Below, one piece after another: positions 12,460 through 48,519 of a DNA stretch of 62,710 bases. The position numbers and the translations under genes are program-made. Each line of letters begins with the position of its first letter. Position 1 is the stretch's first letter. The notes beneath the pieces are model-generated. The model made no database searches. It was given only the letters and a program-made list of their open reading frames with translations, and was not told the origin of the DNA. The stretch is from Erysipelotrichaceae bacterium (GTDB lineage Bacteria; Bacillota_I; Bacilli_A; Erysipelotrichales; Erysipelotrichaceae): assembly GCA_024684175.1 (NCBI GenBank), contig JAIKXJ010000038.1:1-62710 (forward strand), read 5' to 3'.

Positions 12460-12461
12460 GT

Positions 12462-13481: not shown

Positions 13482-13489
13482 AACAAAAA

Positions 13490-13525
13490 ATCCTCCTTTT
13501 TTGGGATAACGTATTAATTTTAACA
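13490..13525 (-). promoter_or_regulatory. Promoter (extended -10) and ribosome site of rfbB
   Basis: On the minus strand TGTTAAAAT gives an extended -10 box (TAAAAT at 13517-13522). No good -35 box is present. The leader of about 28 bases contains AAGGAGGA, which fixes the GTG start of rfbB at 13481. The same nine bases recur before the ATP-grasp gene at 44342. Confidence 0.5.
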
Positions 13526-13629
13526 GAATTCACTAAATAACTCTATAAAGAGAAAAAGAATATCCTCTGCAACAGACATCATATCTTGCGTGTCAACGAA
13601 CAAAAACCCGGTAAAGAAAGGCCGGCAAA

Positions 13630-13657
13630 AAAAATAAAAGCCGATCTATGACCGGCT
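13630..13657 (-). terminator. Rho-independent terminator after the lipoprotein gene
   Basis: AGCCG and CGGCT pair around a 9-base loop (13639-13657). On the minus strand they are followed by TTTATTTTTTTT. It ends the long unit that includes rfbA and rfbC and separates it from the rfbB promoter. Confidence 0.75.
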
Positions 13658-13677
13658 GTTGCAATAAGGATCTGCCG

Positions 13678-14607
13678 CTAATACAGAGAATCGATCAGTG
13701 CCTGTACTGAAACATCGTGTTCATAGACCGATGGATACAGCACCGTATTGAACGTATGATCCGGATGAATGGTCAGAACGCCGATGTTCTGAAGTTTTTC
13801 CCCTGTAGATGTCAATACAACATTATTTCCGTCAGCATCGTAGACCCCTTCTCCCGGATTGACGGTATGAGAATGACCGTCGATCACCACATCGATCCCG
13901 CTGGTGCGGTCGATGAGTTCGACGGAACTGAATCCTTCCGTCACACTGTTGGAGCCCAGATGAGCGACTACGATCACGTAGTCTACACGGTTACGGACTT
14001 TATCGATGGTCTTCTGTACCTGTTCATACAGGTCCTCCCCGTCATTTCCTTCGTAGAAACTGTAGAGTACCTCACCGTCTTTTTCTATGGCCGCCCTGGC
14101 ATTCTTCCCTTCGATCAAGGTCTCCGGCGTCGTCACACCGATGAAGGCGATCTTCGTATAGCCGTATTTCTTAATTACGTATGGTTTCACCTTCTTTAAA
14201 GGATCCTGGCCGGGTCCCAGATACTTGATATTACAGGAAAGATATTCAAAATCCGATGCATCGATATTTTCTGAAAGTGCATCCAATCCAATGGCAAATT
14301 CTTGGTTCCCCAGCGCAGCCACATCATAGCCGACCGCATTCATGATCTCAACGATGCTTTTTCCTTTCGAAGCAAAAGACAGCGCACCATCAAAAAAATC
14401 CCCGGCGTCGACCAGTGAAACATACTTATGTTCGTTCCTCATTTCGTCCAGATATCCTTTCACACCTGCATATCCGATATCTCCATTGACTTCACTGGCG
14501 ACATCGTTGGTATACAGGATATAGATATCTTCCGTCTGTTCGTGTTCACAGCCGCTCATCACAAACAACAAAGCTAAAGCAATGAACAAAATCACTTTAT
14601 TCTTCAA
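13678..14607 (-). CDS. Lipoprotein with UshA-type metallophosphoesterase fold, active site degenerate
   Basis: The 309-aa protein has a lipobox (VMSGC, Cys20), so it should be anchored outside the membrane. The fold of the UshA/5'-nucleotidase N-terminal domain is clear: ILYTNDVAS (31-38), VDAGDFFDG (66-74), ALGNQEF (98-104), VVAHLGS and DGHSHT. Compared with UshA (Asp-x-His, GNHEFD), the His of the first motif is Ala37, the catalytic His is Gln102 and the Asp of the dyad is Ala105. The C-terminal nucleotidase domain is absent. It may bind rather than hydrolyse a phosphorylated ligand. It is last in its unit, directly after a GDPD-like gene. Confidence 0.8.
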   Translation of the reverse strand: MKNKVILFIALALLFVMSGCEHEQTEDIYILYTNDVASEVNGDIGYAGVKGYLDEMRNEHKYVSLVDAGDFFDGALSFASKGKSIVEIMNAVGYDVAALGNQEFAIGLDALSENIDASDFEYLSCNIKYLGPGQDPLKKVKPYVIKKYGYTKIAFIGVTTPETLIEGKNARAAIEKDGEVLYSFYEGNDGEDLYEQVQKTIDKVRNRVDYVIVVAHLGSNSVTEGFSSVELIDRTSGIDVVIDGHSHTVNPGEGVYDADGNNVVLTSTGEKLQNIGVLTIHPDHTFNTVLYPSVYEHDVSVQALIDSLY

Positions 14608-15531
14608 TCAATCACCCTCACTGTAAAACTGCTCCGGCGTCAAGAAATCCGTATAGATCATCTCCACGCCTTTCTTCAGGAAAGAATCCGCTTCTTTTTT
14701 GTCATCCAAGGTATGAACGGCCACATGGATCCCCATCGACTTCCAAAGAGCGATATCCTCGTCTTCGACCGCCTCTGCCGAAACTGTAATGAAACGTATC
14801 CCGTTTCGCATACAGAACTTTGCGATATCTTCCGCTTCCCATTGGATCTGATACAACGTGAAGATCACGGAATCAAAAGGATAGACATTCATCAGATAGT
14901 CAAGCATTTCCATGGTATAGATCTGCGGAACGATCCGTTTGAGTACTTCCGGATCTTTTTCTTTCGCGTAATCGGTCAGCTGTGAAAATTGCTTATATAT
15001 ACTCACTTCATCACAATATTTGGTATCGGTGATGATATAAATATCCTGATATTCGATCAACAGATCGATGATATCCTTGTAATCCAGCGGTGTATAATCT
15101 TTGAACAGCGGTGTTTTTTTGAAATTCTCATATGAGTATTCCAGATCGCTGTCTTCATTTCCGGTGATATAGCGCCAGTAATCTTCATCATGGCTGCAGA
15201 TCGTCTGATCATCAGCCGTCAGATCGAAGTCAACTTCAAATACATTATGTCCGATCCCGTAATTGTATTCGAAAGCCTCCAAAGCGTTCGTGTATGTCTT
15301 TGTGCCCTTCCCGCCGAATGCATGAGCAACAAGCACATTGTCCTGCATCCAGTCATAATGAAATACATAGTCGCTTCCCCGGCGCTCTGTCTCATTCTTC
15401 AGTGAAACAAGTTCATTACGCAGATAATGATATTTATCCATCGCAAAAGACAAGGTTTTGTATGCACCAAAACCCAAGACCGCCAATAGAATAAGGACTG
15501 AAATGATGTATATGATCTTTCTATTCTTCAT
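14608..15531 (-). CDS. Membrane-anchored GDPD-like phosphodiesterase
   Basis: The frame is open further upstream, but the true start is the ATG at 15531 inside the end of rfbC (ATGAAGAATAG overlap). The longer version has no family similarity in its first 61 residues. From there the protein is 307 aa with an N-terminal membrane helix (about 5-22) and an exposed glycerophosphodiester phosphodiesterase-type TIM barrel. The metal and catalytic pattern is visible as VAHAFGG, FEVDFDLTADD and CSHDE, then IITDTKYC. The usual HR of the first motif is HA, so the substrate may differ from glycerophosphodiesters. Its neighbours suggest work on phosphodiester-decorated glycans. Confidence 0.8.
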   Translation of the reverse strand: MKNRKIIYIISVLILLAVLGFGAYKTLSFAMDKYHYLRNELVSLKNETERRGSDYVFHYDWMQDNVLVAHAFGGKGTKTYTNALEAFEYNYGIGHNVFEVDFDLTADDQTICSHDEDYWRYITGNEDSDLEYSYENFKKTPLFKDYTPLDYKDIIDLLIEYQDIYIITDTKYCDEVSIYKQFSQLTDYAKEKDPEVLKRIVPQIYTMEMLDYLMNVYPFDSVIFTLYQIQWEAEDIAKFCMRNGIRFITVSAEAVEDEDIALWKSMGIHVAVHTLDDKKEADSFLKKGVEMIYTDFLTPEQFYSEGD

Positions 15532-16090
15532 AAATAAAGTTTGCATTGCATTCTTCCAGGGAAGGAGCGACCTTGTCTTTTTCGGAAAGGATCGGTTCGA
15601 TCCCGTTGAGTAATGTTCCCCAGTCGACATTGATGGTCGGATCGTCATAGCGGATGCCGCCTTCCGACTCCTTGTTGTAGAGCTCATCGCACTTGTATTG
15701 AAACTCCACATCATCCGTGACTGTCAGAAAGCCATGAGCCATGCCCTTGGGCATGTAGAACATCCGCTTGTTTTCTTCCGAAAGCTCACAGGATACCCAT
15801 TGTCCGTAAGTGGGCGAACCCTTCCGTACGTCGACCGCCACATCGATGACCTTGCCCTTGGTGCAGCGAACAAGCTTTGCCTGGGAATACGGAGCTCTTT
15901 GATAATGCAGGCCCCGCAATGTGCCCTTATGGGCAGAGAAAGACATGTTGTCCTGCACAAAGACGGTATCGATGCCCATCTCATGAAATTTCGCTTCGTT
16001 ATAGGTCTCCATAAACCAGCCCCTGTTATCGCCATAACAGTCCGATTCGATGATGTAGACGCCTTCGATCTTGGTTTCGATCTTCTTCAT
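15521..16090 (-). CDS. rfbC: dTDP-4-dehydrorhamnose 3,5-epimerase
   Basis: It epimerises dTDP-4-keto-6-deoxyglucose at C3 and C5 in the rhamnose pathway. The length of 189 aa is typical. Cupin-fold motifs are visible: GDNRGWFMETY (20-30), the catalytic His62 in RGLHYQ, VDVRKGSPTYG, and MAHGFLTVTD, with a Tyr near 138 in DELYN. It starts seven bases after rfbA and overlaps the GDPD-like gene by 11 bases. Confidence 0.97.
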   Translation of the reverse strand: MKKIETKIEGVYIIESDCYGDNRGWFMETYNEAKFHEMGIDTVFVQDNMSFSAHKGTLRGLHYQRAPYSQAKLVRCTKGKVIDVAVDVRKGSPTYGQWVSCELSEENKRMFYMPKGMAHGFLTVTDDVEFQYKCDELYNKESEGGIRYDDPTINVDWGTLLNGIEPILSEKDKVAPSLEECNANFIYEE

Positions 16091-16097
16091 ATGCCTG

Positions 16098-16982
16098 TTA
16101 TTCTGCCTTTCCTTCCGCGACCGCCTTCAGATGTTCGCCATAAGGAGACTTCCCGTAATGCTTTGCGCTGTCCAGAAGCTTTTCCTTATCGATCCAGCCG
16201 TATTTGTATCCGATCTCTTCCGGAGCGGAGATGACATAGTTCTGCCGCTTGGAAATGATCTGTACGAACATCGCCGCCTCCAGCAGGGAATCCATCGTAC
16301 CGGTATCGAGCCATGCATAGCCTCTTCCCAGCAGCTGGACATCCAGTTTCTCCTGTTTGAGATACATGTCGTTGAGCGTCGTGATCTCAAGTTCGCCTCT
16401 TGCGGAAGGCCTGACGTTCTCCGCCATGGCGGAAACGCCGGCCGGATAGAAATACAGACCGGTGATGCAGTAGTTGGATTTCGGATGTTCCGGTTTCTCT
16501 TCGACGGAAAGGACCTTGCCGTCCTTGTCGAATTCGACGATGCCGAAACGCTCCGGATCGTTGACATGATAGCCGAAGATCGTAGCTCTTCCGTTGCCCT
16601 GGGCATTCTCCGCCGCTTTTTTCAGGATATGTGAGAAACCGTCGCCGAAGAAGATGTTGTCGCCCAATACCATCGCACAGGCATCATCGCCGATGAACTC
16701 TTTCCCCAGGATGAAAGCCTGCGCCAGTCCGTCCGGAGAAGGCTGTACGCAATACGAGAGACGGACACCGAATTGATTGCCATCACCTAAAAGCTGTTCA
16801 AAACGCGGTGTATCGGACGGTGTCGAAATGATCAGGATATCCTTGATCCCCGCCAGCATCAATGTGCTCAGCGGATAATAGATCATCGGTTTATCGTAAA
16901 CCGGCAAAAGCTGTTTGGATGTGACCATCGTGAGCGGATAAAGTCTTGTTCCGGCACCGCCGGCTAAAATAATGCCTTTCAT
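16098..16982 (-). CDS. rfbA: Glucose-1-phosphate thymidylyltransferase
   Basis: It makes dTDP-glucose from dTTP and glucose-1-phosphate, feeding both the rhamnose and the 3-amino-sugar branches. The 294-aa protein has the signature [11 protein letters not shown] (8-18), [15 protein letters not shown] and the metal-binding VLGDNIF. A good GGAGGT site precedes the ATG. A 28-base gap from the upstream HAD-like gene contains no terminator, so it is likely read through in the same unit. Confidence 0.97.
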
Positions 16983-18985: not shown

Positions 18986-20701
18986 TCAGATGATCTCCAT
19001 CTTTCCGTTTGGATCTCCGTATTTCTTCAAGAAATGCTCCCTGATCTCTTCGCTCTCGCAGATGATGACATCCGATCTTTCATAAAAGATCTTTTCGATA
19101 TCGGCCGTGATCTTTTCCGTATGAAAATTGGATGCCTGATGATATTCTTCCGGGATCCTGCCGTGCGTGTCCCAATAAACATTTACGCCTTCCAGATCGA
19201 AGATCTTGTACATGTCGTCGGAGATCTTGTCTCTCATGAAACGGATGACACTGTGGATCAGACAATTTCCGCAATCCCGTATCAGTTTCAGCACTTCTTC
19301 GCTCTGTAAGATATCGAAGCTGTTGCACACGATGCAGGCGTGTCTGTCGTCAAGGATCTTCACTTTAAGATGTTCCGCGATGCGGTCTTCGCCTGAAAAA
19401 TAGATCATAAAACGGTCATTGAAATGTTCATCGACGGTCCTGACCCTGGCGTCGTAGCCGTCGCTGCCGGAACCGGGCAACGGTGCGAAGACGAACATCG
19501 TCTCCTTTTCTCTGATGATCTGTTTCAGTTTTTCCTTGTTCCTGTTGTCCTCATCGAACTGCCTTTTATCCTCGATCTTCGACTTCATCTTCCCGATGAA
19601 CCATTTCGGAAAAGACAATCCGTGTTCTTTCACTTTTCGATAGACTCTCTTGCAGAAGATGACCGATTTCGCAAAACCGAGGCCCGGGATCTCCGAATCC
19701 GGAGCTTTGACATAATCATACGTGATCTTTTTGAAATAATCTTCCGCCAGGATATCCAGAGCATAGACTTCGTTGGCCTCTTTCAGGCACATATCGGAGA
19801 TCTGCTTCCTCAGTTTTTCATTTTCGATCAGTTCGCTGATCGCAGCGACCCATTCTTCTGTCGTATTATTGACTAACAAGCCGTTTTCCCGGTCACGGAT
19901 ACCGAAAACATAGGGCTCGCAGTTCGTATAGATACCGGCAATGCCGAAAGAAGCATATTCGACATATTTATTGAAGTACTTGCAGCGGTGAAACTCCGTC
20001 AAAGGCATCGGTGCCAGGCCGATATCCCAGTTGCATTTGGCCATACATGCCGTATAGGCATCGTAACCGTCCTGATACGGAAGGTGTTTCAGACCGAGTT
20101 TATCGACAAAATCCGGTCTTGCCCCCATGATCTCGATCTCAATGGAATCGCCGTATTTTTGAACGATCTGCGTGACCGCTTCTTCCAGGATCTCGTTCAG
20201 ATCCTGTGCCCGGTCGATCGAACCGGCAAAACCGATCTTGACCTTATCGTTTTTTTCTTTCCTGGCGATCCTGTTCAGAGAAGGTTCCGGAATATTGAAT
20301 CTATATTTGAAATCCGGACCGTATTTTTCCAACAGAACAGGCGAAGGCGATAAAAACGTATCGCAGTTGGACATGATCGTCCTGATGTTCTTCTGCGTCG
20401 AAGGAAGCAGATAATACGGTGCGCTGCTCAGATACGAAGGCACATTCAAAAGATCATCATCCATGACATAGATGAGCTTCTTTCCCGCCTTTTTGGCGAT
20501 CTTGGAAACATAGGCATCGATGTCGGAATCCGATCTTAAAAAGACGATAATATCCGCCCATTCGACATTCTTTTTATTTATGAAATGGGAAATGGAAAAC
20601 TTGTAACTGCATTTCCCCTCTTTTTCCAGATATTCCAGCTGGCAATGTCCGCACAATAAAACGGAAGGAATAAAAGTTGTCGAAACGACCAGAACATTCA
20701 T
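18986..20701 (-). CDS. Glycosyltransferase (GT4-like) with a second, incomplete GT-B domain
   Basis: The first 340 residues form a full GT-B enzyme. The C-terminal donor half shows VKIGFAGSIDRAQDL, WDIGLAPMPLTEF and KYVEYASFGIAG. A charged linker (about 360-400) leads to a second N-terminal-type Rossmann half (about 400-571: ETMFVFAPLPGSGSDGY, RFMIYFSGEDR, VIICESEEIREHF). This ends just where the donor-binding half should start, and the stop is followed after one base by the next gene. Either the protein has lost its second catalytic half or the half-domain has a binding role. The start overlaps the ABC ATPase by four bases. The sugar donor is unknown. Confidence 0.75.
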   Translation of the reverse strand: MNVLVVSTTFIPSVLLCGHCQLEYLEKEGKCSYKFSISHFINKKNVEWADIIVFLRSDSDIDAYVSKIAKKAGKKLIYVMDDDLLNVPSYLSSAPYYLLPSTQKNIRTIMSNCDTFLSPSPVLLEKYGPDFKYRFNIPEPSLNRIARKEKNDKVKIGFAGSIDRAQDLNEILEEAVTQIVQKYGDSIEIEIMGARPDFVDKLGLKHLPYQDGYDAYTACMAKCNWDIGLAPMPLTEFHRCKYFNKYVEYASFGIAGIYTNCEPYVFGIRDRENGLLVNNTTEEWVAAISELIENEKLRKQISDMCLKEANEVYALDILAEDYFKKITYDYVKAPDSEIPGLGFAKSVIFCKRVYRKVKEHGLSFPKWFIGKMKSKIEDKRQFDEDNRNKEKLKQIIREKETMFVFAPLPGSGSDGYDARVRTVDEHFNDRFMIYFSGEDRIAEHLKVKILDDRHACIVCNSFDILQSEEVLKLIRDCGNCLIHSVIRFMRDKISDDMYKIFDLEGVNVYWDTHGRIPEEYHQASNFHTEKITADIEKIFYERSDVIICESEEIREHFLKKYGDPNGKMEII

Positions 20702-21444
20702 TCTTTGATCCCTGTTGCCTTCCTGTACGCACTGCAGACTTCTTCGGTATCACCGAACATGACGACTTTTCCGTGGTCCAGCCAGATGACTTTATCGCAC
20801 ATCTCTTCGATCTTTTCCAGATCATGAGAGACGAACAGGACCGTCGCACCACCGGACATCAGTTCTTTCATGCGGTTGAAGCTCTTCTCCTGAAAAGCCA
20901 CATCGCCGACTGCCAGAATCTCATCGACGATCAGGATCTCAGGCTGTACGACCGAGGCAATCGAGAATGCAAGTCTGGCCATCATACCTGAGGAATAGTT
21001 TCGGATCGGCATATCGATGAATTCACGGATCTCCGCAAAATCGACGATCTCATCGTATTTAGACTCCAGATACTCTTTCGAATAGCCCAGGATCGCACCG
21101 TTGAGATAGATGTTTTCTTTTCCTGTCAGTTCCAAATCAAAGCCGGCGCCAAGTTCCAGCATCGGCACGATATTGCCATAGGTACGTATGGAACCCTGTG
21201 TCGGTTTCAGGATCCCTGAGATCAGCTTCAGAGTCGTTGATTTTCCTGCGCCGTTCTTGCCGATCAGCCCCAAGGTCTTGCCTTTTTCCAATACGAAAGA
21301 GACATCATCCAATGCCAGGAATTCGTTGAATCTGAGTTTTCCTTTGACTGCGGTCGTGAAGACTTCTTTCAGAGAATTGAGCGGTTCATCCGACATTCTG
21401 AAACGCATCGTCACGTGCTCGACTTCGATCATATTATCCGCCAT
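20698..21444 (-). CDS. wzt: ABC transporter ATPase for polysaccharide export
   Basis: This 248-aa ATPase has Walker A GKNGAGKST (62-70), the Wzt/TagH-type signature YSSGMMARLAFSIA, Walker B EILIVDEILAVGD and a switch His in FVSHD. It powers transport of a completed lipid-linked glycan across the membrane. It ends right after the nucleotide-binding domain. There is no C-terminal carbohydrate-binding extension like the one that selects finished chains in some Wzt proteins. The permease gene lies nine bases upstream. Confidence 0.93.
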   Translation of the reverse strand: MADNMIEVEHVTMRFRMSDEPLNSLKEVFTTAVKGKLRFNEFLALDDVSFVLEKGKTLGLIGKNGAGKSTTLKLISGILKPTQGSIRTYGNIVPMLELGAGFDLELTGKENIYLNGAILGYSKEYLESKYDEIVDFAEIREFIDMPIRNYSSGMMARLAFSIASVVQPEILIVDEILAVGDVAFQEKSFNRMKELMSGGATVLFVSHDLEKIEEMCDKVIWLDHGKVVMFGDTEEVCSAYRKATGIKE

Positions 21445-21453
21445 ATGTGACCC

Positions 21454-22878
21454 CTACAGATATAACGCGAACTTGTCCTGTGTCTTTTTGAAAGTGTAAG
21501 CACCGATCGACAGCGACAGGATCGCAAACATTAAACAGAAGATATATGCCCTGGGTTCCGGCGAGATGCCGTTGATCAGACAAGTACGGCAGTTGCCGAT
21601 GAAATGATACAACGGGTTGAACCTGACGATGAATTTATACTTATCGGGAATGATCTCTGCCGGATAGAAGATCGGTGTAGCATACATCCAGATCTGCGTC
21701 AATACGGTCCATAAAAACTGGATGTCTCTGAAAAAGACCATCAATGCCGACAAGAACAAGCCGATGCCCAGAGAAAAGATGATCAGACAGGCCAGGAAAT
21801 AGAAGAACAAGATCGCCTGCGGGCGGATCGCCACGCCTAAGATCAGTGATGCCAAAAGCAGCGGGACCAGAGAGATCCCCAGATTGATGGCGGAAGAGAT
21901 GGTCCTGGCCAAAGGGAAGATATACTTCGGGATGTAGACTTTCGTGATCAGTCTCGCGTTGCCGCTGATCGAAGAAAGACACATCGTCGTACATTCGTTG
22001 AAGAAACTGAAACAGACGACACCGCTCAAAAGATAGACCGGATAGTTCTGTGTATCGGAAGAAAAGAATGTCGAGAAGACCAGAAACTGCACCGTCATCG
22101 TCAGAAGTGGATTCAAAAAGCTCCAAAAAACACCTAAGATCGACCTCTTGTATTTTGACTTGAAATCGCGGATGACCAGCTGTGAGATCAGGAACTGATA
22201 GCGGTACATTGCCGCGATCGCAGCGACCAGATAATTCGTCCTTCCGTTGACATGATTTTTATATGAATAAAAGAAGATCAGACCCAGGAAGAGCCCCAGA
22301 CCGCCCATGATGAACCAGTAATACTGGCTGATGGCGATCTTTTCGCTTCCGCTGACGGAAAAGCAGATCGAACCTTCCAAGGCTTCGTCATTGACTTTGA
22401 TCAAAGACCCTTCCGGAACAGCAGACTTGTTCATCATGACAGAAACACCTTGGTTCAGTGAACTGTTGGAATAGATGCGGATCGTCAGCTTCTTTCCTCT
22501 CAGCCCGCGGATCGGATTTTCCGGGATCAGGTAGACTCGATGCTGCTCCGGGATCTTATCGACATCGAAGATCTTTCGGAATAAAAGATCCTCGCCATCA
22601 AAAAGATCCACTGCCAGAAGGCCTTTTCCTTCTCTGTATAGTTTGGTAAAGATGATCGAGACCTGGTCGATGTTGTCTACCGTGTTGATGAACTCCTGGC
22701 TGACTATGACGCCTCTTGTAAGCTCCGGTGTGACAGAATCCGCCTCGATGACGGCGATACTGTCTTCAACGGTCCTGTACTTCAGCTGATCGCCGGATAA
22801 AAAATAAAAAGATACTGCGAACACAGCATATACTAAGAAAGCAATCAAAAATACCTTTTTCAGATCATTTCTCTTCAT
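21454..22878 (-). CDS. wzm: ABC polysaccharide export permease with an N-terminal extracytoplasmic domain
   Basis: The C-terminal 260 residues are an ABC-2 type permease of the Wzm/TagG/RgpC group (SKYKRSILGVFWSFLNPLL, YATPIFYPAEIIP, FNPLYHFI). Unusually, a membrane helix at about 9-28 and an exposed domain of about 125 residues (51-177) come first, followed by another helix at about 187-205. The exposed domain is strongly similar to the whole ectodomain of the next gene upstream (shared QEFIN/QDFIN, QHRxY, KKLTIRIY, MMNK, CFSVS). A related domain is found in the DUF2142 protein at 25444. Typical Wzm proteins lack such a domain. It may hold or sense the glycan at the outlet. Confidence 0.9.
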   Translation of the reverse strand: MKRNDLKKVFLIAFLVYAVFAVSFYFLSGDQLKYRTVEDSIAVIEADSVTPELTRGVIVSQEFINTVDNIDQVSIIFTKLYREGKGLLAVDLFDGEDLLFRKIFDVDKIPEQHRVYLIPENPIRGLRGKKLTIRIYSNSSLNQGVSVMMNKSAVPEGSLIKVNDEALEGSICFSVSGSEKIAISQYYWFIMGGLGLFLGLIFFYSYKNHVNGRTNYLVAAIAAMYRYQFLISQLVIRDFKSKYKRSILGVFWSFLNPLLTMTVQFLVFSTFFSSDTQNYPVYLLSGVVCFSFFNECTTMCLSSISGNARLITKVYIPKYIFPLARTISSAINLGISLVPLLLASLILGVAIRPQAILFFYFLACLIIFSLGIGLFLSALMVFFRDIQFLWTVLTQIWMYATPIFYPAEIIPDKYKFIVRFNPLYHFIGNCRTCLINGISPEPRAYIFCLMFAILSLSIGAYTFKKTQDKFALYL

Positions 22879-23409
22879 TTATTCGCTCACTGAAAAGCAC
22901 AACGTCCCCTTGATCGTCTTGTTTCCGAACCGGAACGAAACATCGGCATCTTTATTCATCATGATCATCAGACCCGTATCTTCTTTATCTACCGGATAGA
23001 TGCGGATCGTCAGCTTCTTGTTTTTCATACCGCTCAGTCTGGCTGCCGGCTCGATATAAGTCCTGTGCTGATCTTCAAACTTCGCCGTATCCAAAGTCGT
23101 CGCTGCCAGCACTTTCTCGCCTTCCAACAATTCCATTGCTACCCTGATACCTTCTCTGTAGGCAAATCTGGTGAAAACGATACCGACTTTGGAGATCGAA
23201 TCTGTCGAATTGATGAAATCCTGCTCGACGACGATACCTTTTTTGATCTCATTTGTCGTGTTGGTCGCTTCGGTCATCACAGTACTGTCACCTTTTTTGA
23301 TGCCGCTGTGATCCGGGAACATCTTCCCTCCGAATACGATCAGGAGGGTAACGATCACGAACACCGCCGTCACGGCGATGATGATCTTTTCCATATTCTT
23401 ATTTTTCAT
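22879..23409 (-). CDS. Small membrane-anchored protein, stand-alone copy of the permease ectodomain
   Basis: The protein (176 aa) has one N-terminal helix (9-27) and an exposed domain at 51-176. I do not know a named family. It aligns end to end with the ectodomain of the permease encoded directly downstream: GIVVEQDFIN to GVIVSQEFIN, QHRTYIEP to QHRVYLIP, KKLTIRIYPV to KKLTIRIYSN, and MIMMNKDAD and LCFSVSE near the end. The predicted structure is all beta. The stop of this gene touches the start of the permease, so the two are probably made in equal amounts. A tandem duplication followed by fusion to, or fission from, the permease is the simplest origin. Confidence 0.8.
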   Translation of the reverse strand: MKNKNMEKIIIAVTAVFVIVTLLIVFGGKMFPDHSGIKKGDSTVMTEATNTTNEIKKGIVVEQDFINSTDSISKVGIVFTRFAYREGIRVAMELLEGEKVLAATTLDTAKFEDQHRTYIEPAARLSGMKNKKLTIRIYPVDKEDTGLMIMMNKDADVSFRFGNKTIKGTLCFSVSE

Positions 23410-23430
23410 AACATTCCTATTATATCAATT

Positions 23431-24342
23431 TTATATATAGTTTACTAACACCAGGATCTTGAAGAAGAGATCGTTGATACTGTGCGACAAGAATCTCTCA
23501 TCGCTCAAAAGCTTTCGCTTCAGTTTCCGGTCATTCATGTAATTGGCCACGATATTTAGCAGTTCTTTCTTGTCCCGGTCGATCTCATCTCCATAAACAT
23601 GCAACAAAGATCTGGCGGTATTGCTTCTGTAATTCCGGATCTTTCCGTTCAGAAAACGATCCACCCTGCCGACGAAGACTTTGAACACGTTCGCATCCAT
23701 ACCGATCTGGTTATCACCGTGTTGGCGGTAATACATATGGGAAGATCCGTCCAGGATCATCTTGCCGAACATCGTGACGACCTTATGGATGATCGCATCA
23801 TGAATGATGCAAAATTCCTTTTCCCAGTCATACTGAAGTATTTTTTTTCTCGCCGCATGATTGAACACGAACGTACAGCCCGGTGCCGTATGATACAGCA
23901 AGGCGTGCGGAAAGTCCGAGAAACCGTATAAACGGGAGACATTGGAATCGATCGGATTCAGATCGGCATCCGTCAATGTATACTTGCTGCAGTATAAAAG
24001 CGGCATTGAGGCGTCTTCCTGTTTCAGTCTGTTTACCGCCGTCAGCAGTTTGTCTTCAAACCAGACATCATCTTGATCGCAAAGCGCATAGAAGTCTTCT
24101 TCATCGCTTTTTTCGATCAGATCAAAAAAAGATCCGGCCGGTCCTTTGTTCTCTCCCTTGTAATATCTGATCCAGGGATACTTTGCGGCATACTCGTCCA
24201 ATATGGATAATGTACTGTCGCTTGAACCATCATCCCGTATCAGGACCTTATCCGGCCGCAGTTTCTGTCCGATCAGAGAATCCAGCTGCTCTGGCAAATA
24301 TTTTTCGCCATTATAGGTCGATAATAAAACGATCAGGCTCAT
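23431..24342 (-). CDS. GT2 glycosyltransferase, rhamnosyltransferase-like
   Basis: A 303-aa GT-A enzyme with IVLLSTYNGEKYLPEQL (4-20), IRDDGSSDST (35-44) and the DxD-type motif LCDQDDVWF (87-95). A further conserved segment, TAPGCTFVFN, is typical of the RgpB/WbbL-like branch, whose members often transfer rhamnose from dTDP-L-rhamnose. Location next to an ABC exporter and in the same unit as rfbA/rfbC fits, but the donor is inference. It overlaps the next upstream gene by four bases. Confidence 0.85.
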   Translation of the reverse strand: MSLIVLLSTYNGEKYLPEQLDSLIGQKLRPDKVLIRDDGSSDSTLSILDEYAAKYPWIRYYKGENKGPAGSFFDLIEKSDEEDFYALCDQDDVWFEDKLLTAVNRLKQEDASMPLLYCSKYTLTDADLNPIDSNVSRLYGFSDFPHALLYHTAPGCTFVFNHAARKKILQYDWEKEFCIIHDAIIHKVVTMFGKMILDGSSHMYYRQHGDNQIGMDANVFKVFVGRVDRFLNGKIRNYRSNTARSLLHVYGDEIDRDKKELLNIVANYMNDRKLKRKLLSDERFLSHSINDLFFKILVLVNYI

Positions 24343-25439
24343 TTTGATACCTCATCGATCACGTTTTGACATTTTTTCATAAAAACTTCTTTACTGAGAC
24401 ACTCATCAAACAGATCACGGATCCTCTTGTTGTTCTTTCTTCTTTCGATCAGCTTCCTGCCGTCGATCTTCGATCCGTCCCCGACATTGATCCCGGCATC
24501 ATAGGCATTCACCAGATCCCAGGTATCCCCTTTGATGTTGTTGATGATCGGTAAACCGTGCTGAAAGTAATCGATGCACTTCACCGTCAGTCCGATGTAC
24601 AGACCTTCTTTGTAGATATTGATCCCTGCGTGACATGATTCAAAGATCTTTTTCTTTCTTTCTTCATCCCGGATCGCTCCATGATACTCCACGGTGCAGA
24701 CTTCTTTCATGGCATCCAGAAAAGCTTCCGTGTTCTCTCCTTCTCCGATCACGTGCAGAAGTACCGGCATGCTGATCTCCCGAATGACCGCCTGGATCTT
24801 TTTTGTATCGATGATGTTGTTGATCGAACCGAGATAACAAAGCGAAAGTGTCCCTTCGGGTACCTTCGGTTCCGTTTCGATCGCCTTGCCGTCCCTTGCC
24901 CAGCGGATCGTTTCGATCTTTCCGGGGTATTCTTTCTCAAGGATCTTTTTATACAAGTCGCATTCACTGACCAGCATGTCACAGCAGCCGATGTTTTTGC
25001 TGCGGATCTTTCTCCACAGAGAGAACGGAAAGATGTTCTTGTTCGCATGGATCGGGAGCGATTCCGGCCACATATCGATGATATCGATGACCAGTTTTTT
25101 CTTCGGGTATCTTTCCTTGTATCGCTTCGCCTCAAGGATCAGGAAATTGGCCGGAGCCATCAGCCAGATCAGATCCGGATCCTGTTCCTCGATCTTTCGA
25201 AAAGCATCTTTTGCAAACTGTTTGTGCGAAAAGATCCTGGCAAACGAAAGGTTTTTTGCATAAGGCCTTGTCTTTATCGGCCAGAAATGTTCGGGTATCT
25301 GTTCCCTTTTCGCTTTGCGCATATGCGAAAAATCAGAGGTGATCGCTTTGACCTGATGACCTCTGCATTCGCAGGCTTCATATACGAAGCTCAGACGTTC
25401 CTCATTTGATTCAAAACATGTAACGACGGAGACCTTCAT
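24339..25439 (-). CDS. GT-B glycosyltransferase
   Basis: The 366-aa protein has a GT4-like two-domain layout. The N-terminal half ends with a donor-site hinge near LVSECDLYKKILEKEY. The C-terminal half carries SLCYLGSINNIIDTK, VLLHVIGEGEN, HGAIRDEERKKKIF and a late HGLPIINNIKGDTW (E/H-type donor loop). Similar proteins act on lipid-linked glycans at the inner membrane face. Donor and acceptor cannot be deduced. The gene is packed between two others with only four bases on either side, within the ABC-exporter unit. Confidence 0.78.
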   Translation of the reverse strand: MKVSVVTCFESNEERLSFVYEACECRGHQVKAITSDFSHMRKAKREQIPEHFWPIKTRPYAKNLSFARIFSHKQFAKDAFRKIEEQDPDLIWLMAPANFLILEAKRYKERYPKKKLVIDIIDMWPESLPIHANKNIFPFSLWRKIRSKNIGCCDMLVSECDLYKKILEKEYPGKIETIRWARDGKAIETEPKVPEGTLSLCYLGSINNIIDTKKIQAVIREISMPVLLHVIGEGENTEAFLDAMKEVCTVEYHGAIRDEERKKKIFESCHAGINIYKEGLYIGLTVKCIDYFQHGLPIINNIKGDTWDLVNAYDAGINVGDGSKIDGRKLIERRKNNKRIRDLFDECLSKEVFMKKCQNVIDEVSK

Positions 25440-25443
25440 CAGA

Positions 25444-27507
25444 CTAATTCACAAATGTATAAGAAAGAACGTAAACGATGACCTCAAAGACCAACAGCAC
25501 GAATACATAGAGGATGTACGGATCGAATCTTTTTGAAATCTTGATGACCTTGTTGTTCAGACAGACGAACAGATATGGAAGCAGCGGACTGAAGTATCTT
25601 CCCTGAATGCCTTGAATGACCGGTCCTCCGTAGGCGTCGATCACTTCCTGATCGATCTCTGTCCAGGATACCAGCATTCCGCCGGCCATCATGATGCCGG
25701 CAAAGACACACAGCAGCAGGATAGCGCCTCGGAAAAGCAGAGAACCGATGTAGCCTTCATCCCGCAAGGAAGCAAAGATCAGAAGCGCCAACGTGGCATG
25801 GACAAGATATGTCGGTAAGATCAGTGTATTGCCGGATAAAGCTCTGCCAAACGAAGCATAGAACCAGGTCTTCAGGTTATAACGCACCGTACGCAAGAAC
25901 ATCATGATCATCTCGACCGGATGATTCATGACATAAGAGAAAGTATAGATTTCTCCTTCCGTAGGTTCCGGAGAAATAACGAGATCCGCGGACTTTCCGA
26001 TGACAGTCTCTGCTTCTACGTCTTTCAAAAAGACATTCTCATAGATCTTGCGTACGATCCTGAACAATAACGGGAACAGCAGGACCGTCAGTTCAAACAT
26101 CGCCGGAGCAGTCAGGATCAAAGTTCCGATGATCTTGTTTTTTCTGCTCCCGAAGCGCTCTTGCGGAACGAACCAGTAAAGGAACGAGAATAAGGCATAA
26201 ACGACCTTGATCGGTGAGATCATCGCATTGGCGATAAATGCCAGGATAAAATCATTTCTTTCGATTGGCCCTTCCTCACACATCCATTTCAAAAGGAAGG
26301 CAATGATGACGAAAGTCAATCCGTTGATATAGCAGTCATAGGAGAACGAAGCTGCCTGTTGCATGAAGATCGGCAGCGTTGCCATGATCCCAAAAAGGAC
26401 CTTATGGACCGGTGTCTTCTTGACCGCAGTATAGACACAGCCGACATAAAAGATGAGATTGAAGAGCCTGCCCAGATAGAAGGTCCTGAGCATGTTCCAT
26501 TTCAGAAGTCTCGCCAATGTGATTCCCAAGGCCTGCGGGATAAAACAGATCGTATAAGATTCATTGATATCATAATTCATCTTGATGAGCTTGCCCTTCA
26601 GTTTCAAAGGACGGTTGATCTTTTTGATAAACCTCTCATAAGAAGCCGAAATGTTCAGATGGCCTGCCATGGCATCGTAATCCTGATATGTTTCGTCGAT
26701 GATCAAATGGTTTTTGGATCCCATCATCTTATTGGAAAGCTGCAGGGAGTATTCATAATGGATCGTCTCATCCGGGACCGACATCGGCGTGATGATCAGC
26801 CAGAACGTCAGCCCGAAACAGACGGCGATCACCGTGAACAGGATCTCATACTTCGGTCTCACCAGCAGTATCAGCAAAAGGATCATGGTGAATGTCGTGA
26901 TGACCCAAACGATCACGATGTGATAAAAAAGTTTCAGCTCTTCACTCTCGTTGAGGAAACGCACGGAAAGATCCCCGTCCATGACTTCTCCAGCGATCCT
27001 GAAATCGCTCCCTTCGAACGCTTTCAGATTCGAGTAATAGACACCGGCGCCTTGCCCGGTCGGACTTTGCGAAGAAAGGATCACTTTGATCTTGCTGTCG
27101 ACAGCAGGATCCGGTTTTTCACTTAACGGAAAGATCAGAAAAGCGTTATCTTGAAGAGAAGAAACTTTGACCGTTTTTTCATTATAGATTTTTTCCGTAT
27201 CCGCTCCAAGGATCTTCACATCGAAAGAGCCGCTGTTTTTTCTGGCATAAGTCGCAAATTTGACAGCGATCGCTTCAATGCCTTCTTCTGTATCAAGGAC
27301 CTCTTCAACGGTCAAACCATCGCATAGTTCAATAACGTTGTCGTAGAATTCGTTGCCACTTGAGATCTTCCCGAGAGTATTCTTGTTGGACGATAAAGTA
27401 AAAACGACGGCAACGACCCAAAGTACCATCAGTGCAATGGTGACAGCTTTGTTCTTTTTAAAGTTTTCAACGATCCTGTTTTTCAGATCCTTCAGTTTAT
27501 TTTTCAT
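25444..27507 (-). CDS. DUF2142 polytopic membrane protein with an extracytoplasmic domain, probable GT-C-like enzyme
   Basis: The protein is 687 aa. After a first helix (about 21-39) comes an exposed domain (58-187) with IEAIAVKFATYARKNSGSF and KIKVILSSQSPTGQGAGVY. It resembles the permease-type ectodomain in length, order of strands and ending (MDGDLSVRF). Then at least ten membrane helices follow. The DUF2142 hallmark TPMSVPDETIHYEY (240-253) stands where GT-C enzymes carry their catalytic acid. DUF2142 members are found in rhamnan and teichoic-acid-like loci and are thought to add side sugars outside. It overlaps the next upstream gene by 11 bases. Confidence 0.78.
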   Translation of the reverse strand: MKNKLKDLKNRIVENFKKNKAVTIALMVLWVVAVVFTLSSNKNTLGKISSGNEFYDNVIELCDGLTVEEVLDTEEGIEAIAVKFATYARKNSGSFDVKILGADTEKIYNEKTVKVSSLQDNAFLIFPLSEKPDPAVDSKIKVILSSQSPTGQGAGVYYSNLKAFEGSDFRIAGEVMDGDLSVRFLNESEELKLFYHIVIVWVITTFTMILLLILLVRPKYEILFTVIAVCFGLTFWLIITPMSVPDETIHYEYSLQLSNKMMGSKNHLIIDETYQDYDAMAGHLNISASYERFIKKINRPLKLKGKLIKMNYDINESYTICFIPQALGITLARLLKWNMLRTFYLGRLFNLIFYVGCVYTAVKKTPVHKVLFGIMATLPIFMQQAASFSYDCYINGLTFVIIAFLLKWMCEEGPIERNDFILAFIANAMISPIKVVYALFSFLYWFVPQERFGSRKNKIIGTLILTAPAMFELTVLLFPLLFRIVRKIYENVFLKDVEAETVIGKSADLVISPEPTEGEIYTFSYVMNHPVEMIMMFLRTVRYNLKTWFYASFGRALSGNTLILPTYLVHATLALLIFASLRDEGYIGSLLFRGAILLLCVFAGIMMAGGMLVSWTEIDQEVIDAYGGPVIQGIQGRYFSPLLPYLFVCLNNKVIKISKRFDPYILYVFVLLVFEVIVYVLSYTFVN

Positions 27508-28741
27508 ATCTATCCTGTCTGGCTATTAGATTATTATAATTATCATTATTCAACTTTTCCAGAGAGTATTCGTGTTTGAGATCATGACCGATCAGAAAAC
27601 GGATATTCTCCTTGATCTGTTCCGCATGCGATCCGACAGTCTTGAACCCATACTCTTTCAAGATGCGGTAGCTCGGAGAATTGGGGTCACAGATGCCTAA
27701 GATATCTTTTTTCAGCATCAGATACTCGACGATCTTGCTGGGAAGATATGGCTGGCTTTCCGCACCGGGCATCAGCGTATCGAACAGGACCAGGATATCC
27801 GCGTTTTTCATGATCTCGACCGATTCTTTGTAAGAGACTTTATCATGCAGGATGAAAACATCTTCAAGACCGTAGTCTTTGATCTTTCTCACATCCGGTG
27901 CCTGGATCTCGGAATACTGATGGAAGACGATCTTCTCTTTCAGATCCGGTGTCTCTTCTTTCAGCCGTTTCAAAGCCTCCAAAAAAGTATCGATCCTTCT
28001 CAGTCCGTACAAACGCCCCAGATGGACTGCCTGTTTCACTTCGTGATGGACCGGCGGAACATCAAGAAGATCCGCATACATCTTCCATTGTGGGATATAA
28101 GTCAAAGGATAGACCACTGATCTTTTTAACAGTTCCTTATGATCCGGATACTGACGCAAGGTAAAATCACGCTGTTCCTCGCAGATGAAGACCAGTTCAT
28201 CTGCATGCTTCACGGCAGCCTCTTCATACCTGTTGTTGTACAGGCAGAACGCACCGACATTGAAAGCGATCTTGTAAAAGATGTTCCGCTCACTCAGATC
28301 CGCCTTCTTATACGGCGAGCCCTTGAACGGGTCGGAGAAAGAAGCGATCCATTTGACTTCCGGATGCTTCTTCTTGATCTTCAATCCGGCGATATGGGAG
28401 ATCCCCGGCACGATCGAAGTGAAAAGATGAGTATAGTTCCCCTTCTCAAATTCCTTCAGAGCATCCGCAACATACTTATTCATCAAAAAAAGACCTGCCG
28501 GCAGCCGCAGAGGATAATTCCTCGGTACCGCCCAATCTAGATCCGACGTGTATCTTATATGAAATTTGCGAAACTGTTCATCATTTTCAAGCTCTTTGAT
28601 CAGGCTCGGGTCTTCTTTGCCTTTGAAACAGAAGACATCCATATCCATATCGAGGTTCCGCAGTCGTTTATAGGAAAGGATCGTTACGGTATCATTGAAC
28701 GGAACGAAACTTCCGGGAACGACGAACATCCTATCTTTCAT
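27497..28741 (-). CDS. GT-B glycosyltransferase
   Basis: This 414-aa protein has a GT4-like fold. An N-terminal acceptor domain contains HLFTSIVPGISHIAGL and SFSDPFKGSPYKK. The C-terminal donor domain contains AVHLGRLYGLRRIDTF, IVFHQYSE, the loop VFILHDKVSYKESVEIM, and PYLPSKIVEYLMLKKDILGI, where the usual E-x7-E region is partly kept. The donor is unknown. It lies in the operon between the DUF2142 and DUF2304 genes, overlapping both by 11 bases. Confidence 0.78.
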   Translation of the reverse strand: MKDRMFVVPGSFVPFNDTVTILSYKRLRNLDMDMDVFCFKGKEDPSLIKELENDEQFRKFHIRYTSDLDWAVPRNYPLRLPAGLFLMNKYVADALKEFEKGNYTHLFTSIVPGISHIAGLKIKKKHPEVKWIASFSDPFKGSPYKKADLSERNIFYKIAFNVGAFCLYNNRYEEAAVKHADELVFICEEQRDFTLRQYPDHKELLKRSVVYPLTYIPQWKMYADLLDVPPVHHEVKQAVHLGRLYGLRRIDTFLEALKRLKEETPDLKEKIVFHQYSEIQAPDVRKIKDYGLEDVFILHDKVSYKESVEIMKNADILVLFDTLMPGAESQPYLPSKIVEYLMLKKDILGICDPNSPSYRILKEYGFKTVGSHAEQIKENIRFLIGHDLKHEYSLEKLNNDNYNNLIARQDRYEK

Positions 28742-29090
28742 CTTTACCTTTCAATTCATCCAGCTCTTTCTTCAGCAAAGAGATCTGGTAAGTCAGTTTG
28801 ATGATCTCTTCGTTGTGCTTGGAGATCATGATATATACATAAAGAGTCAGCGCATAGAGCAAGGCGGTCATGATCAGGAAGACCGTATTGACCGGCACCT
28901 GTATGCCTAAAAGATGTGACAGCGAATAGAACGTTTCCGGAAAAACAGCCAGAAACAAAGATAGCAGAGCCCAAAGGATCCAGACGATGGAATAACGAAT
29001 ATTCAGCCTCTTTTTGACAACGGCCAAAATAATGACGATGAAGACACCTAAAGAAGCCAGCAATAATCCCAAACGTAAGCCATTGGTCAT
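28731..29090 (-). CDS. DUF2304 small membrane protein, GacJ-like
   Basis: The 119-aa protein has three membrane helices (8-25, about 33-50, 66-86) and a charged coiled-coil tail (KHNEEIIKLTYQISLLKKEL). The motif RYSIVWILWALLSLF is typical of DUF2304. In streptococci the homologue GacJ binds and activates the GT2 enzyme GacI. Here the gene directly downstream is also a GacI-like GT2, so the pair is conserved. It probably acts as that enzyme's membrane anchor and activator. Confidence 0.85.
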   Translation of the reverse strand: MTNGLRLGLLLASLGVFIVIILAVVKKRLNIRYSIVWILWALLSLFLAVFPETFYSLSHLLGIQVPVNTVFLIMTALLYALTLYVYIMISKHNEEIIKLTYQISLLKKELDELKGKDER

Positions 29091-29099
29091 AAATTACCT

Positions 29100-29765
29100 C
29101 TATTGAATGAAGATGATCGACAGGATCTCACAAAGCATGAAATAAACGGATTTGAACGGATTGGCGAAATATGACACTCCGGTCTCCCTTTCTTTCATCT
29201 CGACCTGTATCTCTTTCACATTGAAACCATGGTGGATCAGATAACACATCGCATCCGGCTCCGCATAGAAATTCATCGACCGATCGAACTGTTCGATGAC
29301 CTTCTTGCCCAGAGCCCGCATGCCGCTGGTCGGATCGGTGACTGTCTTGCCGGTCTTCACTTTGATCAGAAGACACAGGAGCCGGCTTCCCAGCATTCGC
29401 GCAGAGAACGGTTTCTTTTTCTTCAGGAATCTCGAACCGACAACATAATCAAAGCCGTTTTCGATCTCTTTGATCAGATCCGACATGAATACCGGAGGGT
29501 GCTGACCGTCGCCGTCGATACAGATGGCGCATTCATAATCATGGTCATGTGCATACATAAAACCCGCTCTGGTCACACCGGCCAGTCCGAGATTGACCGG
29601 CAGATCGAGATGACAGAAATGATTCTCATCGAGGATCTGCGGTGTCCGATCGGTCGAACAGTCGTTGATGATCAGATAGTCATAGCCATATTTCTTGACT
29701 TCATTCGTCAAGTTCGCTATGCTTTCTTCTTCGTTGTATGCGGGAATAACGATCAAAGTTTTCAT
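29100..29765 (-). CDS. GT2 polyprenyl-phosphate glycosyltransferase, GacI/DPM1-like
   Basis: A 221-aa GT-A enzyme with TLIVIPAYNEEESI, INDCSTDRT and the metal motif ICIDGDGQHPP. It has a conserved SGMRALGKKVIEQF region and a hydrophobic end that may touch the membrane. GacI-type enzymes load undecaprenyl phosphate with a single sugar, usually GlcNAc, for later side-chain addition outside. The preceding DUF2304 gene is its likely activator. The start has no Shine-Dalgarno sequence; a TGTTATAAT box ends six bases before the ATG, so a leaderless transcript is possible in addition to read-through. Confidence 0.87.
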   Translation of the reverse strand: MKTLIVIPAYNEEESIANLTNEVKKYGYDYLIINDCSTDRTPQILDENHFCHLDLPVNLGLAGVTRAGFMYAHDHDYECAICIDGDGQHPPVFMSDLIKEIENGFDYVVGSRFLKKKKPFSARMLGSRLLCLLIKVKTGKTVTDPTSGMRALGKKVIEQFDRSMNFYAEPDAMCYLIHHGFNVKEIQVEMKERETGVSYFANPFKSVYFMLCEILSIIFIQ

Positions 29766-31823: not shown

Positions 31824-32229
31824 TTCCGATCTCTTTTAAATATGCATCATAATCGCGTATGTACTCACTTCCGTCATAGTGTGTGCTGGCCAGCACCAGC
31901 AATACGGAATCGGCAGAAAAATCATACATATCCTTCCACACCATCTTCGGGATGTAGACTCCCATCATCGGACGGTTCAGCTCCACGACGAACTCCTCTT
32001 TTCCGTCCGTGATCCTGACCTTGCTGGTACCCGCAACATTGATCAGAACGAATTCCGATTCCCTGTTGGCGTGCTGACCGCGGACCACTGTTGCATCCGA
32101 ACCGTAGATATAGAAAACGCGTGCTATCGAAAAAGGAATGGATTCGTTCCCTTCGATGACGACAAGTTTTCCTCTTTCATCGCCCAGATCCTTGAATTCA
32201 ATGACCGGGCATCGATCTCTCAATGACAT
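31813..32229 (-). CDS. dTDP-4-keto-6-deoxyhexose 3,4-ketoisomerase (FdtA/QdtA family)
   Basis: The cupin-fold enzyme (138 aa from the ATG with AAAGGT upstream; the longer frame starts at TTG) matches the FdtA/QdtA/WxcM-like family: VFYIYGSDATVVRGQHA, VLINVAGTSKVRITDG, MVWKDMYDF, VLLVLAS and YIRDYDAYL. It would turn dTDP-4-keto-6-deoxyglucose into the 3-keto isomer for amination by the adjacent DegT enzyme. The usual RGxHAH motif reads RGQHAN (His53, Asn55). The second His is important in studied FdtA enzymes, so the reaction or its stereochemistry may differ. A co-occurring aminotransferase argues it is functional. Confidence 0.85.
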   Translation of the reverse strand: MSLRDRCPVIEFKDLGDERGKLVVIEGNESIPFSIARVFYIYGSDATVVRGQHANRESEFVLINVAGTSKVRITDGKEEFVVELNRPMMGVYIPKMVWKDMYDFSADSVLLVLASTHYDGSEYIRDYDAYLKEIGNEK

Positions 32230-32231
32230 GT

Positions 32232-45751: not shown

Positions 45752-45754
45752 ATG

Positions 45755-47692: not shown

Positions 47693-47698
47693 GCCTTT

Positions 47699-47704
47699 AT
47701 TTTA
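47699..47704 (-). promoter_or_regulatory. -10-like box directly before the PglF-like start codon
   Basis: TAAAAT on the minus strand, preceded by TGTTG, lies six bases before the ATG at 47692 in a 38-base intergenic gap. It could start a leaderless transcript. AT-rich chance matches are possible. Confidence 0.25.
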
Positions 47705-47730
47705 CAACAGATATTTATATATTCCTACCT

Positions 47731-48504: not shown

Positions 48505-48519
48505 AAAGATCATCCTCCT

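What the first reader, a model, noticed from the sequence alone, without database searches (positions are those of the whole stretch)
21454..27507. A shared extracytoplasmic domain on the ABC permease, a stand-alone membrane protein and probably a DUF2142 protein
The permease (residues 51-177) and the 176-aa protein encoded next to it share an obvious domain: QEFIN/QDFIN, QHRxY, KKLTIRIY, MMNK and CFSVS occur in the same order and spacing. The DUF2142 protein has a module of the same size at 58-187 after its first helix, with a similar strand pattern but lower identity. Wzm permeases normally have no large outer domain, and the Wzt here has no C-terminal glycan-binding domain. I infer that glycan recognition may have moved to the outside of the membrane, with the domain acting as a clamp or hand-over site between exporter and GT-C-like enzyme.
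Basis: partly seen in the sequence, partly recalled or inferred. Interest (0 to 1): 0.85.

Follow-up and report, generated by a model that had tools for sequence, protein, structure and literature searches.

The report
Shared outer domain on exporter and enzyme
In a group of gut bacteria, the pump that exports a sugar chain, a small membrane-anchored protein and an enzyme predicted to decorate the chain outside the cell carry related copies of one outer domain, which suggests that export and decoration are coupled at the cell surface.

Summary
The Wzm-type permease, the adjacent 176-aa protein and the DUF2142 protein carry one homologous domain of about 140 aa. Family profiles align colinearly: permease-small E 3e-43, permease-DUF2142 3.4e-14, small-DUF2142 6e-7, far above 200 column shuffles. 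Two AlphaFold models show the same beta-sandwich between the first two membrane helices, with the same leading PDB matches (phage, capsid, lectin-like and esterase domains); the DUF2142 core resembles GT-C enzymes. In 13 of 272 genomes of one family all three copies occur. All 17 domain-bearing DUF2142 genes checked sit near a GT2 + DUF2304 (GacI/GacJ-like) pair. In three loci the domain is a separate TM-beta-TM protein beside a DUF2142 without it; one Wzm lost the domain but kept its helix hairpin. My reading: the domains hold the exported polymer outside so that the GT-C enzyme can decorate it. Glycan binding is inferred. 'Recognition moved outside' fits only partly. Outer polymer-binding domains on exporters have a precedent in TagGH. 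New variant of a known kind.

The parts
21454..22878 (-). Wzm-type ABC permease, 474 aa, with N-terminal TM-beta-domain-TM extension
   Evidence: PF01061 E 1.9e-18 on residues 231-428; Foldseek hits to Aquifex Wzm 7k2t/6oih at about 30% identity, E 6e-5 to 7e-5
22339..22779 (-). Extracytoplasmic beta-sandwich domain of the permease, residues 34-180
22879..23409 (-). Stand-alone copy of the domain with one N-terminal TM anchor, 176 aa; its stop codon directly abuts the permease start
   Evidence: BLASTP 40% to permease; hhalign E 3e-43; no Pfam or NCBIfam family above cut-off
22885..23289 (-). Domain part of the 176-aa protein, residues about 41-175
   Evidence: alignment to permease domain; not modelled
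25444..27507 (-). DUF2142 membrane protein, 687 aa, GT-C-like core with N-terminal TM-beta-domain-TM extension
26947..27372 (-). Extracytoplasmic beta-sandwich domain of the DUF2142 protein, residues 46-187
   Evidence: AlphaFold pLDDT blocks 81-94, between helices 20-40 and 189-216; same leading PDB matches as the permease domain; hhalign E 3.4e-14 to permease domain
20698..21444 (-). Wzt-type ATPase, 248 aa, no C-terminal carbohydrate-binding domain
   Evidence: PF00005 E 6e-21; NF050108 galactan Wzt as best NCBIfam, below cut-off; reference for the tail measure
28731..29090 (-). DUF2304 small membrane protein (GacJ/WpsB-like)
   Evidence: PF10066 E 3.6e-22; DUF2304 called typical of GacJ-like proteins in PMC8327497 (passage)
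29100..29765 (-). GT2, 221 aa, probable Und-P-sugar synthase (GacI/WpsA position)
   Evidence: PF00535 E 1.7e-23; a homolog and DUF2304 lie within 6 kb of all 17 domain-DUF2142 genes checked
23431..25439 (-). Two glycosyltransferase-like genes (GT2 303 aa, GT4-like 366 aa) between the DUF2142 gene and the 176-aa gene
   Evidence: PF00535 E 2.6e-20; PF13692 E 0.0048, below cut-off; same order in related loci
27497..28741 (-). GT4-like glycosyltransferase, 414 aa, between DUF2304 and DUF2142 genes
   Evidence: PF00534 E 1.4e-5, just below cut-off
37365..38648 (-). Wzx-type flippase, candidate for lipid-linked side-chain units
   Evidence: PF01943 E 6.4e-21
11584..16982 (-). dTDP-rhamnose genes (RmlD 11584-12459, RmlB-like 12462-13481, RmlC 15521-16090, RmlA-like 16098-16982); two further genes lie between
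   Evidence: PF04321, PF16363/PF01370, PF00908, PF00483

Best explanation
The three proteins share a polymer-handling domain on the outer face of the membrane in a dual-pathway surface-polysaccharide system. Wzm/Wzt exports a lipid-linked, probably rhamnose-containing backbone. The GT2 + DUF2304 pair makes an Und-P-sugar, which Wzx may flip. The DUF2142 GT-C enzyme transfers it to the backbone outside the cell. Lectin-like domains on the permease (two per Wzm dimer), on the anchored 176-aa protein and on the enzyme hold the emerging chain, so that it stays near the membrane and is handed to the enzyme. Shown by computation: homology of the three domains, fold of two of them, conserved gene order, GT-C-like core. 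Inferred: outer topology, glycan binding, capture and hand-over.
Confidence: 0.5

Rival explanations
1. The domains are docking modules: beta-sandwiches of exporter, small protein and GT-C enzyme bind each other (or a shared protein) and assemble a complex, without binding glycan themselves.
For: Homologous domains on separate proteins of one pathway can pair with one another (general knowledge). PHR domains show the same fold. No Trp platform. Permease and small copies are most alike and their genes abut.
Against: Several genomes lack the small protein (G105, G124, G125, G127), and G119 lacks the permease domain while its DUF2142 copy persists. G101 and G309 gave a single match, on DUF2142. 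A partner copy is therefore not obligatory.
Confidence: 0.25
2. The domain is a chain-length or co-polymerase regulator, like the lactococcal WpsH/WpsI pair, and sets how far the GT-C enzyme extends a chain.
For: The stand-alone TM-beta-TM proteins next to DUF2142 in L049, L051 and L053 have the layout described for WpsH: a large outer loop between membrane segments, paired with the DUF2142 protein WpsI (PMC12599335 passages). Papers differ on which of the two is the polymerase.
Against: It does not explain a copy on the Wzm permease. Sequence homology to WpsH was not tested.
Confidence: 0.12
3. The domains recognise something other than the exported polymer, for example peptidoglycan or lipid-linked acceptors, and place the export site in the wall.
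For: An LCP-type gene lies in the same window (1890-4589), so the polymer is probably wall-linked; the fold neighbours are varied; the TagGH outer domain is likened to SH3b wall-binding domains (PMC11466899 passages).
Against: A copy fused to, or encoded beside, the decorating enzyme points to its acceptor or donor rather than to the wall.
Confidence: 0.1

Closest known systems
Wzm/Wzt O-antigen and galactan exporters (Aquifex 7k2t/6oih); RgpCD-type rhamnan exporters
   Same: ABC2 permease core and Wzt ATPase
   Different: Known substrate recognition is by a CBD on Wzt (PMC9445017 passages); here Wzt has none and Wzm carries an outer beta-domain between two extra helices
TagGH teichoic-acid exporter of Bacillus subtilis
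   Same: Gram-positive glycopolymer ABC exporter with an outer domain that may bind polymer (PMC11466899 passages)
   Different: There the domain is SH3b-like, sits on the ATPase subunit behind an added helix, and no sharing with an enzyme is mentioned; here it is a different fold, on the permease, shared with a GT-C protein
GT-C enzymes with acceptor-binding CBMs (EmbC, AftD, Citrobacter youngae ORF12)
   Same: GT-C enzyme carrying an extracytoplasmic beta-sandwich; in ORF12 the polymer is exported by Wzm/Wzt (PMC11127046 passages)
   Different: ORF12's CBM is C-terminal (residues 503-652), dispensable in the test, and its Wzt has its own CBM; here the domain is N-terminal and shared with exporter and a stand-alone protein
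GacI-GacJ-GacK-GacL and WpsA-WpsB-WpsG-WpsJ multi-component glycosylation systems
   Same: GT2 + DUF2304 pair, Wzx-type flippase, GT-C enzyme (DUF2142 for several wps proteins), ABC-exported rhamnan (PMC10821137, PMC8327497, PMC12599335 passages)
   Different: No outer domain shared by permease and enzyme is mentioned in the passages I saw
Lpt system (LptFG permease, LptC)
   Same: Works alike in outline: permease subunits and a single-TM protein carry related beta-jellyroll domains that pass a glycolipid on (recalled; mentions only the jellyroll domains of LptB2FG)
   Different: No homology was tested or seen; different fold, cargo and cell envelope; no GT-C enzyme in the chain
WpsH/WpsI pair of lactococci
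   Same: DUF2142 protein with a partner that has a large outer loop between membrane segments (PMC12599335 passages)
   Different: Homology untested; the window's stand-alone copy has a single TM and sits beside Wzm

Membership tests
Wzm polysaccharide-export permease | ABC2 membrane domain adjacent to a Wzt-type ATPase | tested here: met
   PF01061 E 1.9e-18; Foldseek match to solved Wzm at about 30% identity; Wzt gene 9 bp downstream
Wzm polysaccharide-export permease | usual length of about 255-290 aa without outer domain | tested here: not met
   474 aa, with 222 residues before the core
Wzt with C-terminal carbohydrate-binding domain | a C-terminal domain after the ATPase | tested here: not met
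   248 aa; Pfam finds only the ATPase and related P-loop families
GT-C glycosyltransferase, DUF2142 subfamily | DUF2142 profile | tested here: met
   PF09913 E 4.1e-37, cut-off passed
GT-C glycosyltransferase, DUF2142 subfamily | GT-C fold | tested here: met
GT-C glycosyltransferase, DUF2142 subfamily | conserved acidic residues in the first outer loop of the core | tested here: met
   D246 and E247 invariant in 54 sequences; that such residues are catalytic is recalled, not tested
GT-C glycosyltransferase, DUF2142 subfamily | transfer from a polyprenyl-phosphate sugar | not testable with these tools
   needs biochemistry; GT2 + DUF2304 neighbours are indirect support
Carbohydrate-binding module | sequence match to a known CBM family | tested here: not met
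   no CBM family in Pfam for the window copies or seven remote copies and L055's; profile A5 against solved-structure sequences gave only two hits at E 0.43 and 0.6
Carbohydrate-binding module | CBM-like beta-sandwich fold | tested here: inconclusive
Carbohydrate-binding module | binds glycan | not testable with these tools
   needs binding assay
Multi-component transmembrane glycosylation system | GT2 with DUF2304 partner, flippase and GT-C protein encoded together | tested here: met
   PF00535, PF10066, PF01943 and PF09913 in the window; GT2 + DUF2304 at 17 of 17 domain-DUF2142 genes checked
WpsH-like co-polymerase | sequence homology to WpsH | not tested
Lpt bridge proteins | homology to LptF, LptG, LptC or LptA jellyroll | not tested
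   analogy only; no comparison was run

The most novel reading that the evidence does not exclude
An extracytoplasmic relay for glycans, working like the Lpt bridge works for lipopolysaccharide: permease, single-TM protein and GT-C enzyme use paralogous lectin-like domains to pass one growing chain from the ABC channel to the decorating enzyme, and outer recognition stands in for the Wzt carbohydrate-binding domain as export checkpoint or ratchet.
Probability: 0.25. Interest if true: 0.82.

Novelty: new variant of a known kind. Interest (0 to 1): 0.62.

Why it matters
How a polysaccharide exported by an ABC transporter meets the enzymes that decorate it outside the cell is unresolved: a 2021 review speculates that separate acceptor-binding proteins exist (PMC8035078 passages), and the role of the CBM on an ABC-coupled GT-C enzyme is called unclear by its authors (PMC11127046 passages). 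Here one domain family marks exporter, enzyme and a stand-alone protein in one gene cluster. That makes the coupling idea testable with three short soluble domains, and a natural domain-less exporter (G119) offers a comparison.

Tried and rejected
Chance similarity: rejected by shuffles and reversed profiles. Similarity due to shared membrane helices: rejected, since the aligned columns lie almost wholly in the beta-domain between the helices.

'Domain-Wzm replaced the Wzt CBD': exclusive occurrence was found (0 of 19 measured domain-Wzm pairs have a Wzt tail of 60 aa or more, against 27 of 39 domain-free pairs; Fisher p 1.5e-7). I do not treat it as shown. The domain-bearing loci are related (Wzt 57-100% identical to the window's); G049 and G058, the nearest outside that group, have short Wzt too; and 40 of the loci were hand-picked from the 76 rows to span short and long Wzt (one of the 40, L110, proved domain-bearing). 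In the table G109 appears twice (L021, L057); the Wzt of five domain rows (L020, L021, L022, L026, L028) is cut by the locus end and left out of the 19. The other Fisher value used all 24 rows and counts G109 twice. Four loci without a Wzm hit (L103, L106, L107, L111) were left out. Pairs were formed with the nearest Wzm within 6 kb; in L050, L113, L127, L128 and L133 it lies 1.0-3.3 kb away, so those pairings are less sure, and the Wzt of L126 is cut with a tail of at least 115.

P0044 (domain piece joined to an ABC ATPase piece on an 829-base contig) was rejected as a probable assembly chimera. A diverged copy of the domain in the DUF2142 proteins of L049 and L053 was sought and not found (hmmsearch E 0.36 and 0.019 among four sequences; hhalign prob at most 0.4 and 1.1). 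The class-level draw gave 4 of 296 genomes (model A5) and the phylum-level draw 5 of 392 (model A4); other phyla were not searched by the genome search. The genome-contig scan used patterns from 26 of the 41 small proteins and confirmed 5 of 19 matched stretches. Model A5 contains rows from eleven of its 26 matched genomes; the A4 search, built from the window and three of those genomes, gave 24 of 272. The first script for the neighbourhood table stopped with an error and was rerun in full. Alignment A2 for the permease model holds 44 of the 45 permeases; P0057 was left out by oversight.

Literature: the searches show no title or abstract start about an outer carbohydrate-binding domain on Wzm. 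Several lists were cut (10 of 240, 15 of 28, 15 of 19, 12 of 17) and the library is open-licence only, so this is weak evidence of novelty. One listed paper (PMC11466899) turned out on reading passages to describe an outer domain on TagGH; I added it as a precedent.
Full report
Observation. The three ORFs lie on the minus strand within a run of closely spaced genes. The stop codon of the 176-aa gene directly abuts the permease start. The permease and the 176-aa protein are 40% identical over 139 residues. The permease and the DUF2142 protein align at 23% over 123 residues, E 7e-6. The 176-aa and DUF2142 proteins do not match by BLASTP. Searches of a 5.8-billion-protein set returned 42 proteins for the 176-aa query, 45 for the permease domain and 54 for the DUF2142 domain, window copies included. 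Profiles built from 41, 45 and 54 of them (P0044 dropped as a chimera; P0001 used in place of its database copy P0045) align colinearly over most of the domain: E 3e-43, 3.4e-14 and 6e-7. None of 200 column shuffles nor the reversed profile came near in any pair.

Distribution. One scan of 84,980 species genomes with patterns from the small protein found 5 loci, titled Erysipelotrichaceae (3), Solobacterium and uncultured Firmicutes. The A4 domain model found three copies in each of four of these genomes and two in the fifth, whose contig is cut. In the family of G001 (the genome of L001, titled Erysipelotrichaceae) it matched 24 of 272 genomes, in the order 26 of 315, and in an even draw of the phylum 5 of 392; these sets overlap. 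With the wider A5 model it was 26 of 272. By my reading these 26 are: 13 with permease, small and DUF2142 copies (in G117, G123 and G134 on broken contigs, so the DUF2142 piece is inferred in G117 and G123); G004 with two copies on a cut contig; 4 with permease and DUF2142 copies but no small one (G105, G124, G125, G127); 2 with the DUF2142 copy only (G101, G119); 4 with the permease copy (G055, G065, G066, G237, the last with a partial extra piece at a contig end); 1 stand-alone (G191); 1 marginal and not followed (G048). G299 and G498 (stand-alone) and G309 (DUF2142 copy) came from the wider searches.

Gene order. DUF2142 - GT4-like - GT2 - small - Wzm - Wzt - GT is seen in L001, L002 and L005 and, with or without the small gene, in L042, L043, L045, L046, L056, L057, L058 and L060. 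All 17 domain-bearing DUF2142 genes checked (window, L001-L003, L005 and those within L042-L061) have homologs of the 221-aa GT2 and of DUF2304 within 6 kb on the same strand. DUF2304 next to a GacI-type GT2 is called typical of GacJ-like proteins (PMC8327497 passages), and GacI/GacJ and WpsA/WpsB make GlcNAc-P-undecaprenol (PMC10821137 passages). The window also holds a Wzx-type flippase, dTDP-rhamnose genes and an LCP-type gene. This is the parts list of a wall polysaccharide with an ABC-exported backbone and outside decoration by a GT-C enzyme.

The domain as a movable unit. In L049, L051 and L053 a separate TM-beta-TM protein with the domain sits next to a DUF2142 protein in which no copy is detectable (in L049 the second helix is read by eye, below the script's threshold). 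In L050 and L052 the domain is on DUF2142 while Wzm is of usual size (259-260 aa) and Wzt is long (375-378 aa). In L054 (G119) Wzm keeps two extra helices but the beta-domain is gone, whereas DUF2142 keeps it. A tree of 58 copies puts 15 of 17 DUF2142 copies in one clade (100/99) and 13 of 14 small copies (those of 173-180 aa beside Wzm) in one clade (100/99); the 15 permease copies nearest the small ones join them only with weak support (66/96), and remote copies are unplaced. I infer, tentatively, that the small gene arose by copying the permease end after the permease/DUF2142 split.

Wzt and the outer domain. In 19 domain-bearing Wzm pairs with uncut Wzt, the Wzt length beyond the window's ATPase end is -5 to +4 residues; in 39 domain-free pairs 27 have a tail of 60 or more (p 1.5e-7). 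Relatedness and hand-picking weaken this, and the nearest relatives outside the group also have short Wzt. Exclusive occurrence is real in this set; replacement is not shown.

Mechanism. Best reading: the domain binds the polymer outside the membrane and brings exporter and GT-C enzyme to the same chain. Precedents are acceptor-binding CBMs on EmbC, AftD and ORF12, the last in a Wzm/Wzt-dependent pathway but dispensable in the test made (PMC11127046 passages), a predicted outer SH3b-like domain on the TagGH exporter (PMC11466899 passages), and a review's speculation about separate acceptor-binding proteins (PMC8035078 passages). The layout permease-with-domain plus single-TM protein with a related domain also recalls LptFG and LptC (recalled, untested). 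Against: no binding data, almost no Trp in the domains, different conserved polar motifs on permease/small and DUF2142, no CBM family hit. Docking between the domains remains a serious rival.

Papers. I saw only passages found by term in PMC12599335, PMC9746298, PMC8035078, PMC9445017, PMC10821137, PMC11127046, PMC8327497, PMC4931226 and PMC11466899; PMC3044687 (EmbC CBM) was seen in a listing only.

Verdict. A real, conserved domain family without a Pfam or NCBIfam entry links exporter and enzyme; the interpretation as an outer glycan clamp is plausible and partly supported. New variant of a known kind.

Noticed in passing
L054 12724-15649 (G119): A Wzm (14669-15649) with the extra TM hairpin but without the beta-domain, a natural domain deletion; a GT2-like gene with membrane segments and a gene that reads like a YdjC deacetylase (recalled) lie upstream of it.
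   Followed up: partly
L044 2030-3019 (G124): At the place of the small gene a 329-aa polytopic protein that reads like an acyltransferase (recalled, not scanned); this genome has two domain-bearing Wzm loci.
   Followed up: no
window 1890-4589: LCP-type (LytR-CpsA-Psr) protein of 899 aa that also carries PASTA and Flg_new repeats and weak substrate-binding-protein matches; an unusual domain combination.
   Followed up: no
window 31813-33347: FdtA-type protein next to a DegT aminotransferase: probably a dTDP-3-amino-3,6-dideoxyhexose is part of the polymer.
   Followed up: no
window 44474-50455: DegT aminotransferase, nucleotide-sugar dehydratase-type protein and a formyltransferase, then SDR and thiolase genes: suggests a formylated or acylated amino sugar.
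   Followed up: no
window 17011-18984: 657-aa protein with a HAD-like part, found in some of the related loci only; its C-terminal half has no Pfam family.
   Followed up: no
window 18986-20701: 571-aa protein with two GT-like parts; homologs in four loci (L043, L044, L045, L056) are only 379-395 aa.
   Followed up: no
window 14608-15714 and 15521-16090: The longest ORF for the GDPD-type protein overlaps RmlC by 194 bases; probably its true start is downstream.
   Followed up: no
G048:C85:407-556: Marginal domain-model match (E 6.6e-4) inside a 1436-residue open frame.
   Followed up: no
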